Shown here piece by piece: positions 21,097 through 32,886 of a DNA stretch of 33,822 nucleotides. A program made the translations under genes and the position numbers. The first letter of the stretch is position 1. The number at the start of each line of letters is the position of its first letter. This DNA comes from a virus. The stretch lies in IMG/VR virus record IMGVR_UViG_3300025435_000050, positions 1 through 33,822 of that record; one strand, given 5' to 3'. A model generated the notes under the pieces. It did not search any database and was not told where the DNA came from. It worked only from the letters and a program-made list of their open reading frames with translations.

Positions 21097-21117
21097 GCCG
21101 TTGCAAGATGCAACGGC
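21097..21117. promoter_or_regulatory. Type-G palindrome upstream of the first HTH paralogue
   Basis: A perfect inverted repeat whose core is GTTGCAAGATGCAAC, flanked by GCC/GGC, 21 bases before the ATG of the 21139 gene. It is the first of six elements with this core between 21.1 and 24.2 kb. Confidence 0.7.
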
Positions 21118-21138
21118 AACATCGAGAGGGTAATCATC

Positions 21139-21657
21139 ATGGCAACCAACAACACCATCACCGTCTGGACTGGCCGCCACAGCTACGCGGAGCTGCGCGA
21201 GCAGGCCGAGCTTACCGTTGCATCTTGCAACGCTGCAGCGCATGACCTGGAGCGTTTGATCGGCCTGGCAGGCTGGTACGTGCAGTCGAAGAAGTGGTCC
21301 AAGGCCACGGCGGACCACGAGGCGTTCGACAGCAAGCAGGACTTCCTGGCGTGGTTCTGCGGTGAGCACCTCAGCGGATTGCGTGCCGAGGCGCGCAACA
21401 TGGTCATCAGGTTCATGGCCGCCCATGGCGTTGACGCGGGTCCGATCGGGCGTGCCATGAAGGTGTCCACCGCCACCGCGTCCCGGGTGGGGCGTGGCTT
21501 GCAGGGCAACGGCGGTCACGGTGGTGCCCGTAACCAGGTGTCGCCGGTTGCCAAGCTGGCGGAGGGTCTGGCCAAGGTCCAGGCGGACAAGCTGACCAAG
21601 GAGGACCTGGCGGCGCTGCGCAAGATGCAGAAGCAGATCGCCAAGCTGATCGGCTGA
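21139..21657 (+). CDS. HTH DNA-binding protein, paralogue 1 of 3
   Basis: 172 residues; GAGAGGG precedes the ATG. The core HEAFDSKQDFLAWFCGEHLS is followed by an HTH at about 95-118 (GVDAGPIGRAMKVSTATASR) and a glycine-rich GNGGHGGARN linker, then a C-terminal Lys/Leu helix (KLTKEDLAALRKMQKQIAKL) that may oligomerise. The block AF....F..WF...L.G......VI.FM...GV...I..A...S...S and GNG..GAR are shared with the proteins at 23454 and 26998. A sequence-specific regulator is likely. Type-G palindromes lie upstream, inside (codons 27-31) and downstream of the gene, suggesting self-regulation. GC content is higher than in the late operon. Confidence 0.85.
   Translation: MATNNTITVWTGRHSYAELREQAELTVASCNAAAHDLERLIGLAGWYVQSKKWSKATADHEAFDSKQDFLAWFCGEHLSGLRAEARNMVIRFMAAHGVDAGPIGRAMKVSTATASRVGRGLQGNGGHGGARNQVSPVAKLAEGLAKVQADKLTKEDLAALRKMQKQIAKLIG
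21217..21231. promoter_or_regulatory. Type-G palindrome inside the coding region of paralogue 1
   Basis: GTTGCATCTTGCAAC in frame, encoding VASCN (residues 27-31). An exact copy of the intergenic core within the gene body. Confidence 0.6.
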
Positions 21658-21672
21658 TTCTCTCACCACACC

Positions 21673-21705
21673 GCCTGCCCCGTTGCATCTTGCAACGGGG
21701 CAGGC
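21673..21705. repeat. Hairpin with type-G core after paralogue 1
   Basis: Perfect 15-bp stem with a TCT loop. The tip is GTTGCA-TCT-TGCAAC and the base is GCCTGCCCC/GGGGCAGGC, 15 bases after the stop. No T tract, so either a U-less terminator or a protein/RNase-recognised stem. Confidence 0.75.
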
Positions 21706-21713
21706 TCACCTTC

Positions 21714-21792
21714 AGGGCGGCACGGCAGCCAGTGGTTACCGTGCCGCTCTGTGGGTGTCCAACACCGGACCCCGATCAAACCCCGCGAGGGG
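21714..21792 (+). promoter_or_regulatory. Structured 5' leader of the 21814 gene
   Basis: A 12-bp stem (21714-21725 with 21739-21750, one G-T pair), then the GGGTGTCC/GGACCCC bulged hairpin (21753-21773) and CCCC-GCGA-GGGG, a GNRA-type tetraloop hairpin. The same modules recur before the 22186 and 22569 genes. Confidence 0.6.
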
Positions 21793-21813
21793 ACGAACGA
21801 GAGGTGTATAGCC

Positions 21814-22044
21814 ATGAACGTCAACGTCGGCGACAAGGTCGAGTGGAACGACATGGGGAGCGTCCGCACCGGAACGGTGCTGCTCGTCGGTAAGAAGCTG
21901 GTGACGATCGAGCTGGACAAGCCTGCGAAAAACTGGCAGGCGAGGGGCATCGGGAACAGCCAGAAGATCATGGCCGACCGCTTGACCGTGGTCGAGGAGG
22001 CCGAGTACGACTTCCCGAACTGGGAGGAGCTGGGCTGCAACTGA
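21814..22044 (+). CDS. Small SH3/KOW-like protein (76 aa)
   Basis: MNVNVGDKVEWNDMGSVRTG then TVLLVGKKLVTIELD reads as a short beta barrel of the type NVGDKV.W.....RTGTV. It is followed by a basic segment (GNSQKIMADRLTVVEE) and an acidic C-terminus. GAGAGG lies upstream in a leader conserved with later genes. Possibly RNA, DNA or protein binding; function unknown. Confidence 0.75.
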   Translation: MNVNVGDKVEWNDMGSVRTGTVLLVGKKLVTIELDKPAKNWQARGIGNSQKIMADRLTVVEEAEYDFPNWEELGCN

Positions 22045-22061
22045 CCTCTTGCCAGCACACC

Positions 22062-22096
22062 GCCTGCCCCCGTTTCAAGATGCAACGGGGGCAGGC
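22062..22096. repeat. Hairpin with type-G core after the 21814 gene
   Basis: GCCTGCCCCCGTT and AACGGGGGCAGGC arms around CAAGATG, with one mismatch (T opposite C). Duplicate of the 21673 hairpin with a one-base-longer GC stem and the core in the opposite orientation (AGA loop). Confidence 0.7.
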
Positions 22097-22104
22097 ACAC
22101 CTTC

Positions 22105-22166
22105 AGGGCAGCCGGTTATACAACTGGCATAACCGGCTGCCCTGTGGGTGTCCAACAACGGACCCC
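22105..22166 (+). promoter_or_regulatory. Structured 5' leader of the 22186 gene
   Basis: AGGGCAGCCGGTTAT (22105-22119) pairs perfectly with ATAACCGGCTGCCCT (22129-22143) around a 9-base loop, followed by the GGGTGTCC/GGACCCC hairpin (22146-22166). It is a duplicated and diverged version of the leader at 21714. Confidence 0.65.
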
Positions 22167-22185
22167 GAACGAGAGGAGTACGGAA

Positions 22186-22395
22186 ATGATGGTGTTCGAG
22201 TACACGGTGAAGGTCACGGCGGAGAACCAGCGCGATGCTGCGCGAATGGTGCGCGAGGCCATGGCCGCGACGGCCGGATTGTGGGACTGCTGCCCCGCGA
22301 ACGAGTGGGAACCGAAGTACGGGGACTGCATCGGGGACATGGTGTGGTCCCGGAGCGGGAAGCCCGTTCGTGAGTGGGTGGCGCGGAGCTACTGA
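22186..22395 (+). CDS. Small hypothetical protein (69 aa)
   Basis: AGGAG seven bases upstream of the ATG. MMVFEYTVKVTAENQRDAAR then MVREAMAATAGLWDCCPANE and WVARSY. Beta strand, helix, Cys pair. The (F/Y)EYTVKVTAEN..DA...V.EA pattern suggests a ferredoxin-like small fold. Function unknown. Confidence 0.7.
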   Translation: MMVFEYTVKVTAENQRDAARMVREAMAATAGLWDCCPANEWEPKYGDCIGDMVWSRSGKPVREWVARSY

Positions 22396-22407
22396 TCCGC
22401 CCGATTC

Positions 22408-31759: not shown

Positions 31760-31961
31760 TCGAATGTTCGTCGATCAAGTTCAGAAGGGCTATCGCATTG
31801 AGGTATCTCATCCCACCAATCCGCAACTGAACAGCGAACTCATTGTGGACAAAGTGGTGATGAATGACGGCTGGCACATCCACTGCCATTCCGAAACGGA
31901 ATACGAGTCAGAAGTAGTGGTCACGTACCCGTGGGATACCCGAATCTACGTTAGGACATAA
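31752..31961 (+). CDS. Small hypothetical protein (69 aa)
   Basis: MLSRMFVDQVQKGYRIEVSH then ELIVDKVVMNDGWHIHCHSE, TEYESEVVVTYPWDTRIYVR: beta-rich, His/Tyr-containing. Translation coupled to the gene it overlaps. Unknown function. Confidence 0.65.
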   Translation: MLSRMFVDQVQKGYRIEVSHPTNPQLNSELIVDKVVMNDGWHIHCHSETEYESEVVVTYPWDTRIYVRT

Positions 31962-31963
31962 CT

Positions 31964-32176
31964 ATGAGCAAAGTGGATCCACTGTTGCGTCGCGCCGAGT
32001 CGTCGAGTTTGATGGCGCGGGAACTCAGGGCACGTGGCGCAAGTATCGCCGTTGTTTCCTGGTGGCGGCATCAGGCGTCGCGGGCCACGCTAACCGCTTT
32101 CGACCAGTTGGGGATTATTGTGCCCGATGACTGGTGGCCACCGATGCCAGCCGACTTCACTTGGAACCTGGCCTGA
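31964..32176 (+). CDS. Small basic hypothetical protein (70 aa)
   Basis: ATG two bases after the preceding TAA. MSKVDPLLRRAESSSLMARE then RARGASIAVVSWWRHQASRA, QLGIIVPDDWWPPMPADFTW: basic helical half and a Trp/Pro tail. Unknown function. Confidence 0.6.
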   Translation: MSKVDPLLRRAESSSLMARELRARGASIAVVSWWRHQASRATLTAFDQLGIIVPDDWWPPMPADFTWNLA

Positions 32177-32223
32177 CCAGGCGTGGCGGCGACTGCGGGC
32201 GGCGGCGCGGCGCGGAGCGGGGG

Positions 32224-32240
32224 GATTTCAAAATGAAATC
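32224..32240. promoter_or_regulatory. Type-A palindrome
   Basis: GATTTCAAAATGAAATC after a GC-rich stretch (32183-32223) resembling that before the 26622 element. A short AGACGC-TAA-GCGTCT hairpin (32245-32259) follows. Confidence 0.62.
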
Positions 32241-32306
32241 GGAAAGACGCTAAGCGTCTGAGGCGCGACACGAGCTACCGGAACTGGACAATAGAATACT
32301 AAGTTC

Positions 32307-32321
32307 GATTTCAAAATGAAA
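32307..32321. promoter_or_regulatory. Partial type-A element overlapping the ribosome site
   Basis: GATTTCAAAATGAAA; the right arm runs directly into the AAAGG ribosome site of the 32331 gene. Confidence 0.5.
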
Positions 32322-32330
32322 GGCACAAAT

Positions 32331-32630
32331 ATGTACTGGAATTATCGGTTGGTTCGCCACGCGGGACGTGTTTTCTTGGCTGAGGTCTACTATCCCGAAC
32401 TGGTTCGGGAAGAGGGAGAGCCGGGATGGATGTTCTGCGAGGCGCGTCTCGACCCGATGATGTTCGGAGGCCCGGACTCGTATTACGACTCCGAATCTGA
32501 GTGCATTACTGAGGCCCGTCGCGATTTGGAGTCGATGTTGCTGGCGTTCGAGAAGCCGGTTCTCCGTGCGGTTCCGAATCCCGACAATAGCGAGCTTGTT
32601 GTTGACATGGTTGAGGAGCTTCCGGTCTAG
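32331..32630 (+). CDS. Hypothetical protein (99 aa)
   Basis: ATG at 32331, with AAAGG seven bases upstream; an in-frame ATG at 32316 lies in the palindrome and is less likely. MYWNYRLVRHAGRVFLAEVY then MFCEARLDPMMFGGPDSYYD, ECITEARRDLESMLLAFEKP and an acidic C-terminus. The (M)Y(W/Y)NYR(L/I)VR opening is frequent in actinophage small proteins; function unknown. Confidence 0.72.
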   Translation: MYWNYRLVRHAGRVFLAEVYYPELVREEGEPGWMFCEARLDPMMFGGPDSYYDSESECITEARRDLESMLLAFEKPVLRAVPNPDNSELVVDMVEELPV

Positions 32631-32655
32631 CTGATCCAATCAGGAGGAGAATACT

Positions 32656-32787
32656 ATGCACGGTCTTTTGGGTGTTGCTGCCGTAACGATTGCGTTGGCG
32701 GCGGTCTTTGAGGGTTTTCGGGTGGCGGGTTCGGCGGCGCGTGAGATTTCATACACGCCTGCTGAGCGAGATGGGCTGGACCGTTAG
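32656..32787 (+). CDS. Small membrane or exported protein (43 aa)
   Basis: AGGAGGAGA before the ATG. MHGLLGVAAVTIALAAVFEG is a membrane helix or signal anchor, followed by FRVAGSAAREISYTPAERDG. Unknown function. Confidence 0.6.
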   Translation: MHGLLGVAAVTIALAAVFEGFRVAGSAAREISYTPAERDGLDR

Positions 32788-32800
32788 CTTATTGCAAAAC

Positions 32801-32829
32801 TTGACAAGAGTGGCTTGATTTGATAGAAT
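32801..32829 (+). promoter_or_regulatory. Strong rightward promoter before the amidoligase gene
   Basis: TTGACA, exactly 17 bases, TAGAAT: the best sigma-70-type promoter in the window. The transcript would start near 32836 and carry the type-A palindrome at 32866 in its 5' leader. Confidence 0.75.
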
Positions 32830-32865
32830 TATATTTGAGGCTCGAAAGCGCACTAACCGCAGGCC

Positions 32866-32886
32866 CCGATTTCAAAATGAAATCGG
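32866..32886. promoter_or_regulatory. Type-A palindrome in the amidoligase leader
   Basis: GATTTCAAAATGAAATC with CC/GG flanks, about 37 bases after the -10 box and 24 bases before the ATG at 32911, so it is placed to act as an operator or RNA hairpin on that transcript. Confidence 0.7.

What the first reader, a model, noticed from the sequence alone, without database searches (positions are those of the whole stretch)
21097..32886. Two segregated families of intergenic inverted repeats with one shared architecture
Seen: at least 18 inverted repeats at gene boundaries fit TT(G/T)CA-NNN-TG(C/A)AA. The GTTGCA/TGCAAC flavour occurs only between 21.1 and 24.2 kb; the GATTTCA/TGAAATC flavour only between 24.1 and 32.9 kb. 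The flavours differ by paired changes (G-C to T-A), so the symmetry is conserved while the sequence switches. None occurs in the late operon. Known parallels are mycobacteriophage stoperators (cluster A) and start-associated sequences (cluster K), but those motifs differ. Inference: an undescribed phage-wide operator or RNA-hairpin system.
Basis: partly seen in the sequence, partly recalled or inferred. Interest (0 to 1): 0.9.

Follow-up and report, generated by a model that had tools for sequence, protein, structure and literature searches.

The report
Gene-boundary dyad and hairpin array
The early genes of an unnamed phage, probably one infecting actinobacteria, are separated by about twenty copies of a short mirror-symmetric DNA motif that sits about 25 bases before gene starts or, inside long RNA hairpins, about 25 bases after gene ends; it looks like a phage-specific control site of a kind already seen in Corndog-type mycobacteriophages, and its function has never been tested.

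Summary
There are 20 exact TT(G/T)CA-NNN-TG(C/A)AA sites, plus one with a single change, all between 21.1 and 32.9 kb; chance predicts about 0.17. Nineteen of 21 are intergenic. The two flavours are segregated except for one interleaved pair. Start-side sites are bare 17-bp dyads, usually 24-32 nt before a start codon, with centre AAA, AAT or AGA on the sense strand (9 of 9). Stop-side sites begin 20-30 nt after a stop codon and form the apex of 10-23 bp hairpins whose lower stems differ between sites but stay paired. Cluster O mycobacteriophages (Corndog) carry the same 7-3-7 dyad with a different half-site. I re-analysed their member Firecracker: 14 of 22 early-block sites lie 19-33 nt before starts, mostly AAA in sense, although the published account reports no start link or orientation. 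So this is a new variant of a known, unexplained kind. Best reading: operators for a dimeric phage DNA-binding protein, possibly one of three HTH paralogs encoded among the sites, with the core also built into post-stop RNA hairpins acting as 3'-end or attenuation elements. No binding or function has been tested.

The parts
21099..21115 (+). start-side dyad CGTTGCA-AGA-TGCAACG, 24 nt before HTH paralog P1
21139..21657 (+). HTH paralog P1 (172 aa), candidate regulator
   Evidence: paralogy; weak HTH family hits; helix-turn-helix in low-confidence model
21216..21232 (+). dyad CGTTGCA-TCT-TGCAACG inside the P1 gene, 117 bp from the upstream dyad (11.1 helical turns)
21673..21705 (+). stop-side hairpin with GTTGCA core (site 21681-21697), 15-bp stem
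22062..22096 (+). stop-side hairpin with hybrid core GTTTCA-AGA-TGCAAC (site 22071-22087)
22104..22144 (+). second hairpin of the same spacer, 16-bp stem, no core motif; stem differs from its counterpart in the 21.7 kb module but stays paired
22408..22460 (+). 24-bp perfect hairpin without core motif after a stop codon
22481..22513 (+). hairpin with GTTGCA core (site 22489-22505), 15-bp stem plus outer CCGGTCG/CGACCGG
23365..23402 (+). post-stop hairpin in the same position but with an unrelated apex (TTTATGCA-GG-TGCATAAA); approximate limits
23454..24068 (+). HTH paralog P2 (204 aa)
24085..24127 (+). stop-side hairpin, 20-bp stem, GATTTCA-AAA core (site 24098-24114)
24147..24179 (+). hairpin with GTTGCA core (site 24155-24171); duplicate of 22481-22513 with one compensatory base-pair change
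24827..24875 (+). stop-side hairpin, 23-bp helix including G.U pairs, GATTTCA-TTT core (site 24843-24859)
25212..25248 (+). stop-side hairpin, 17-bp helix including G.U pairs, core GATTTCA-TTT-TGGAATC (site 25222-25238)
26102..26118 (+). start-side dyad GATTTCA-AAT-TGAAATC overlapping the 3' end of the upstream ORF, 32 nt before the next start
26546..26568 (+). stop-side dyad, 10-bp stem, centre AAA (site 26549-26565)
26622..26638 (+). start-side dyad (one arm decayed), 25 nt before start
26891..26921 (+). stop-side hairpin, 14-bp stem, centre TTT (site 26898-26914)
26956..26976 (+). start-side dyad, centre AAT (site 26958-26974), 24 nt before HTH paralog P3
26998..27681 (+). HTH paralog P3 (227 aa)
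27698..27730 (+). stop-side hairpin, 15-bp stem, centre TTT (site 27706-27722), the only one followed by a T-rich tail
27923..27939 (+). start-side dyad GATTTCA-AAA-TGCAATC, 30 nt before start
30197..30213 (+). start-side dyad AATTTCA-AAA-TGAAATC, 14 nt before start, next to SD GAAAGGGA
30558..30574 (+). start-side dyad, copy of 30197, 13 nt before start
32224..32240 (+). dyad GATTTCA-AAA-TGAAATC, 91 nt before start, paired with 32307
32307..32323 (+). start-side dyad (one arm merged with the SD), 8 nt before start
32801..32829 (+). only strong SigA-type promoter match in the block (TTGACA-17-TAGAAT, 11 of 12)
32868..32884 (+). start-side dyad, centre AAA, 27 nt before start, about 30 nt downstream of the expected transcription start of the promoter at 32801

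Best explanation
The 17-bp dyad is a binding site (operator) for a dimeric phage-encoded DNA-binding protein, placed at many gene boundaries of the early operon so that early genes are controlled one by one. Start-side copies lie in the leader just upstream of the Shine-Dalgarno sequence, so they would act downstream of promoters (roadblock or silencing, stoperator-like) rather than by covering promoters. Stop-side copies are built into strong RNA hairpins just behind the terminating ribosome, which serve as 3'-end, attenuation or processing elements. The two flavours would reflect two related dimers with different half-site preference, plausibly from the three HTH paralogs P1-P3. Shown: the sites, their two registers, the covarying stems and the paralogs. 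Inferred: protein binding, which paralog binds what, and termination or attenuation.
For: Core sequence and 3-nt spacing are conserved over 21 sites. Centres occur only as strand-swapped sets (AAA/TTT/AAT; AGA/TCT), as expected of a double-stranded DNA site used in both orientations. Start-side sites have no pairing beyond the 7-bp arms (14 of 45 outer cells paired, background 25%), and their one-sided changes are not biased to G.U, so an RNA stem is not what is kept there. Three HTH paralogs lie among the sites; P1 has a dyad 24 nt upstream and another inside its gene 11.1 helical turns away. The same 7-3-7 dyad with AAA/TTT centre, usually 19-33 nt before starts in the early block, occurs in Cluster O phage Firecracker, and the Cluster O authors also infer dimeric binding proteins (PMC4351075). 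Contig L299, which encodes a relative of window gene 29332-29718, repeats a per-gene cassette of post-stop terminator hairpin, dyad, promoter-like box and SD. Stop-side RNA structure: 38 of 40 outer cells paired when sites are chosen by position only, covariation, spacer fold z-scores -4.7 to -13 for the hairpin-bearing spacers.
Against: No binding protein is shown. P1-P3 have no detectable relatives in the collections tried, and the fold model is low confidence. Start-side centres are all purine-rich in sense (9 of 9; p 0.005), also 13 of 14 in Firecracker, which a symmetric operator would not require and an RNA loop would. Only one of the stop-side hairpins has a T-rich tail, so termination is not evident. 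A plain operator does not explain extended covarying arms.
Confidence: 0.5

Rival explanations
1. RNA-level system: the sense transcript's 17-nt hairpin (loop AAA or UUU) is the recognised ligand, bound by a phage or host RNA-binding protein or acting alone, controlling translation start or mRNA processing gene by gene.
For: Fixed distance to start or stop codons on the sense strand; sense centre AAA, AAT or AGA at all 9 start-side sites and AAA or AAT at 13 of 14 in Firecracker; long covarying stems with sense-only wobble pairs at 24843 and 25222; three right-block spacers fold 14-17 kcal/mol better in sense than antisense.
Against: Loops AAA and UUU, or AGA and UCU, are not equivalent for an RNA binder yet both occur on the stop side; left-block stems are strand-symmetric; start-side hairpins are weak (about -7 kcal/mol, z -1.9 in the one 45-nt spacer folded).
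Confidence: 0.25
2. The hairpins are plain intrinsic terminators, insulators or mRNA-end protectors, and the shared core is only the result of copying spacer modules between genes; no trans-acting factor is involved.
For: Whole spacer modules are duplicated (21.7 and 22.1 kb; 22.5 and 24.2 kb); post-stop hairpins without the core occur in the same place (22408, 23365); L299 has ordinary terminators after its genes.
Against: The core is kept in start-side copies with unrelated flanks while other spacer sequence diverges; only one stop-side hairpin has a T-rich tail.
Confidence: 0.15
3. Partition or nucleoid-type array: a ParB/KorB-like or bridging protein binds the dyads to organise or silence the early region rather than regulate each gene.
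For: The GATTTCA half-site resembles the bacterial parS half-site (TTTCA..TGAAA; own knowledge); Firecracker, with a similar array, encodes a ParB-like protein; contig G021 has 32 TTGCANNNTGCAA sites spread over 42 kb, mostly inside genes.
Against: Spacer is 3, not the 2 of parS; no ParB found among the proteins tested in this fragment; sites track gene ends here, unlike G021.
Confidence: 0.06
4. Recombination sites that shuffle gene cassettes between boundaries.
For: Sites at gene boundaries; duplicated spacer modules.
Against: A palindromic core with a variable outer stem is the reverse of attC logic (own knowledge); no recombinase found among the proteins tested; Cluster O authors saw few rearrangements at their repeats (PMC4351075).
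Confidence: 0.04

Closest known systems
Cluster O mycobacteriophage 17-bp dyad repeats (Corndog, Firecracker; PMC4351075)
   Same: 7-bp arms, 3-bp spacer, AAA/TTT centre, tens of copies, densest in the non-structural operon; 14 of 22 early-block sites in Firecracker lie 19-33 nt before starts, with AAA or AAT in sense in 13
   Different: Half-site TGTTCGG instead of GATTTCA or GTTGCA; a single flavour; also present among late genes and inside ORFs; no extended covarying stems (37% outer pairing)
Cluster EG Microbacterium phage 18-bp inverted repeat (Hyperion; PMC7302621)
   Same: Dyad in short intergenic regions 14-22 bp before starts
   Different: 8-2-8 layout, different sequence; not re-analysed here
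Per-gene cassettes of contig L299 (G023)
   Same: Post-stop hairpin followed by a shared dyad before the SD; shares a homolog of window gene 29332-29718
   Different: Dyad 10-(6/7)-10 with another sequence; hairpin and dyad are separate; T-rich terminator tails and promoter-like boxes present
Cluster A stoperators
   Same: Many intergenic sites inside transcribed regions
   Different: Published as asymmetric, 13 bp and oriented with transcription (as cited in PMC4351075 and PMC3203893); here symmetric apart from the centre
Cluster K SAS/ESAS
   Same: Start-associated, restricted to non-structural genes; ESAS holds inverted repeats
   Different: SAS is asymmetric and at the SD; ESAS repeats are 17 bp each with a 4-13 bp spacer and hold putative promoters in Adephagia (PMC3203893, PMC11373665)

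Membership tests
Cluster O-type 17-bp dyad repeats | Two 7-bp inverted arms separated by 3 bp, near-invariant arms, many copies | tested here: met
   a few arms with single changes
Cluster O-type 17-bp dyad repeats | AAA or TTT as usual centre | tested here: met
   for the GATTTCA flavour; the GTTGCA flavour uses AGA/TCT
Cluster O-type 17-bp dyad repeats | Half-site sequence TGTTCGG/CCGAACA | tested here: not met
   half-sites are GATTTCA and CGTTGCA, so this is the same architecture but not the same element
Cluster O-type 17-bp dyad repeats | Shared early genes or a shared candidate binding protein | tested here: not met
   no window early protein matches the fetched Firecracker region at E 1e-4
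Cluster A stoperators | Asymmetric 13-bp site in one orientation relative to transcription | tested here: not met
   symmetric arms; centre orientation is fixed only on the start side
Cluster A stoperators | Bound by the immunity repressor, terminates transcription | not testable with these tools
   needs biochemistry; no repressor gene identified in the fragment
Cluster K SAS | 13-bp GGGATAGGAGCCC at the SD | tested here: not met
   start-side SD regions read GAAAGGG and similar, not this motif
Intrinsic terminators | GC-rich hairpin followed by a run of T | tested here: not met
   only 27697-27731 qualifies among the stop-side hairpins
Covarying RNA hairpin | Compensatory changes across copies exceed controls | tested here: met
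   11 of 15 pairs changed on both sides, score 0.716 against 0.12 or less when slid; those ten sites were picked for long arms; one search repeats the pairing test on sites picked by position only
parS (ParB site) | TGTTTCACGTGAAACA with 2-bp centre | tested here: not met
   3-bp centre and GATTTCA arms; consensus from own knowledge
Rfam families | Match above gathering score | tested here: not met
   only sub-threshold hits (rli61 38.4 bits against 50)

The most novel reading that the evidence does not exclude
One phage runs two orthogonal, paralog-specific recognition systems side by side. The same 17-nt core is read as a DNA operator before genes and as an RNA hairpin after genes, so one protein family could control both transcription and 3'-end formation gene by gene.
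Probability: 0.12. Interest if true: 0.8.

Novelty: new variant of a known kind. Interest (0 to 1): 0.5.

Why it matters
Boundary dyads in actinobacteriophages (Cluster O, Cluster EG and now this phage) have been listed for a decade without a function. This genome adds natural variation that makes the question testable: two half-site flavours in one operon, three linked HTH paralogs to match to them, and a split into bare start-side dyads and stop-side RNA hairpins. The Firecracker re-analysis also changes the description of the best-known case: its early-block sites are linked to gene starts and oriented by their centre.

Tried and rejected
Relatives of the array: no second contig with the exact CC-extended GATTTCA motif; contigs sharing the terminase (G001-G017) have no TTKCANNNTGMAA at all; G005, G009 and G015 carry a few copies of a different palindrome GTGTCC-N6-GGACAC. 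Single-site pattern scans mostly return chance hits. Relatives of P1-P3 in viral contigs (P3), phages (P1, P3), plasmids (P2) and genome contigs (profile): none. AlphaFold model of P1: pLDDT 61; Foldseek gives nothing below E 1, VIA-align best Z 5.1 to translin at 5 A, treated as a common helical arrangement. Typha, Bipper, Cosmo, Ronaldo, Marvin, Alice and MementoMori regions show no comparable dyad family. P1 against the first gene of the L162 array: only a 13-residue HTH-like match, E 0.10. Promoters in the spacers: number found does not exceed shuffles; only 32801 is strong. A sense-strand folding advantage exists only in the right block. Centre orientation as proof of an RNA function was not accepted, because copying of site plus SD as a unit gives the same pattern.
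Full report
WHAT WAS CHECKED. The window is a 33.8-kb IMG/VR virus fragment and the only record of its assembly. The left 1-17 kb holds leftward genes, among them head protease, portal and terminase; the right 21-33.8 kb is a rightward block of small genes. Terminase relatives are mostly actinobacteriophages, the best being mycobacteriophages of the Typha and Bipper type at 49-52%. Right-block genes match mycobacteriophages Marvin (54%), Alice-type phages (34%) and Cosmo (56%). 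The host is therefore probably an actinobacterium (inference).

Twenty exact TTKCANNNTGMAA sites and one with a single change fall between 21099 and 32884, none in the first 21 kb; simulated sequence gives 0.17 per window. Nineteen of 21 lie between genes (p 4e-14). The flavours are segregated apart from 24098 and 24155. Centre triplets are AAA, TTT or AAT in the GATTTCA flavour and AGA or TCT in the GTTGCA flavour, although 64 are possible. Gene starts were assigned by hand from ORFs and SD sequences, so single distances may shift by a codon or more.

TWO CLASSES, NOT ONE. By position alone, eight sites begin 20-30 nt after a stop codon and nine end at most 32 nt before a start codon. A stricter count gives 7 and 8 of 21, against 3.2% and 7.2% of positions (p 3e-6 and 6e-5). 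In the stop-side set arm positions 8-12, outside the core, are paired in 38 of 40 cells; in the start-side set in 14 of 45, near the 25% background (Fisher p 4e-10).

STOP-SIDE HAIRPINS ARE CONSTRAINED AS STRUCTURE. In ten centre-anchored long-arm sites 96.7% of cells pair, 11 of 15 pairs change on both sides, and the covariation score is 0.716 against at most 0.12 when partners are slid. These ten were picked for long arms, so the position-picked test is the unbiased one. Two duplicated modules at 22.5 and 24.2 kb differ within the hairpin by exactly one T-A to G-C double change; the modules at 21.7 and 22.1 kb carry a paired C/G insertion, a flipped loop, and second hairpins with different but paired stems. 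The helices at 24843 and 25222 continue to 23 and 17 bp through G.U pairs on the sense strand. At arm positions 13-17 of the stop-side set, wobble adds 7 pairs in sense and 1 in antisense (p 0.035). Left-block stems are perfect and strand-symmetric, so the sense-RNA argument rests on the right block. Hairpins in the same post-stop place without the core exist at 22408 and 23365, so the hairpin and the core are separable.

START-SIDE DYADS. These are bare 17-bp dyads upstream of GAAAGGG-like SD sequences. All nine have AAA, AAT or AGA in sense, against 4 of 12 elsewhere (p 0.005). At 32868 the dyad lies about 30 nt downstream of the expected start of the only strong SigA-type promoter (32801-32829), so that copy is within the transcript; promoter occlusion is not its likely mode.

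CANDIDATE BINDERS. P1 (21139-21657), P2 (23454-24068) and P3 (26998-27681) are paralogs sharing an HTH-like segment (weak HTH hits). P1 is flanked by GTTGCA dyads, one 24 nt upstream and one inside the gene, 117 bp or 11.1 turns apart, which would suit autoregulation (inference). No relatives or confident fold were found. A fourth HTH protein at 31000-31290 is an excisionase- or regulator-like candidate.

COMPARISON WITH KNOWN SYSTEMS. Cluster O phages carry TGTTCGG-NNN-CCGAACA, 34 copies in Corndog, mostly AAA/TTT centre; the authors infer dimeric binders, and report no close link to start sites and no meaningful orientation (PMC4351075). I fetched Firecracker and found 30 exact sites in 49 kb. 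In its leftward early block 14 of 22 lie 19-33 nt upstream of an annotated start (3.3% expected, p 4e-16), and in the sense of that gene the centre is AAA in 12, AAT in 1 and ATT in 1, against about half elsewhere (p 0.007-0.017). The start-side class of the window matches that arrangement with another half-site; Firecracker lacks the extended stems (37% outer pairing) and shares no early protein with the window. Cluster EG phages have an 18-bp dyad 14-22 bp before starts (PMC7302621). Two uncultivated contigs met here show related designs: L162 has eight AACGCATATGCGTT dyads, all intergenic, five of them 15-27 nt before starts; L299, with a homolog of window gene 29332-29718, repeats a cassette of post-stop hairpin, dyad ACTATCAGCA-N6/7-TGCTGATAGT, promoter-like box and SD.

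MECHANISM. Most likely, a dimeric phage protein binds the dyads as DNA and modulates early transcription within the operon (roadblock or silencing), while post-stop hairpins form 3' ends, attenuate or process the transcript; the core inside the hairpins would tie the two together. The parts are shown; binding, pairing of paralog to flavour, and termination are inferred. The strongest argument against a pure DNA reading is the sense orientation of start-side centres here and in Firecracker; the strongest against a pure RNA reading is that stop-side loops occur as both members of a strand-swapped set and that start-side sites keep sequence, not stem.

NOVELTY. The kind is known though unexplained; two flavours in one operon and the embedding of the core in covarying post-stop hairpins are new features, hence 'new variant of a known kind'. 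The statement that no relative shows this exact array is limited to the collections searched; metagenome contigs were not available.

Noticed in passing
window 5408-7909 (-) and 8396-11113 (-): Portal and terminase genes each carry a long insert that reads as an intein with a LAGLIDADG endonuclease domain; the portal also hits Hint and intein-splicing models.
   Followed up: partly
window about 20970-20990: Two other IMG/VR contigs identical to this phage (L005, L006) both end within 16 bp of each other here, just before the array; a genome end, a hairpin-caused assembly break or a variable region.
   Followed up: no
window 20660-20860: Several TTGTTCGG / CCGAACAA words, the half-site of the Corndog dyad, in the long non-coding stretch before the array; possibly iterons or decayed sites.
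   Followed up: no
G021 (record of L205), whole 41.7 kb: 32 TTGCANNNTGCAA sites spread over the whole contig with free centre triplets, mostly inside ORFs; looks like a genome-wide DNA-binding array in another phage.
   Followed up: partly
L162:3934-7744: Eight AACGCATATGCGTT palindromes, all intergenic, five of them 15-27 nt before starts in an early operon; another start-associated dyad family.
   Followed up: partly
L299:9390-11486: Repeated per-gene cassettes: terminator hairpin (two of them with a covarying stem), constant dyad ACTATCAGCA..TGCTGATAGT, promoter-like box, SD.
   Followed up: partly
L274-L276, L280-L284, L292-L293: Terminase relatives share a sparse GTGTCC-N6-GGACAC palindrome, 3-5 copies each.
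   Followed up: no
window 30587-30985 and 32911-33822: A short paralog (44% over 108 aa) of the amidoligase / glutamine-amidotransferase-like protein; both genes have a dyad directly upstream.
   Followed up: no
window 17047-17116 (-): tRNA-Phe call with the unusual anticodon AAA.
   Followed up: no
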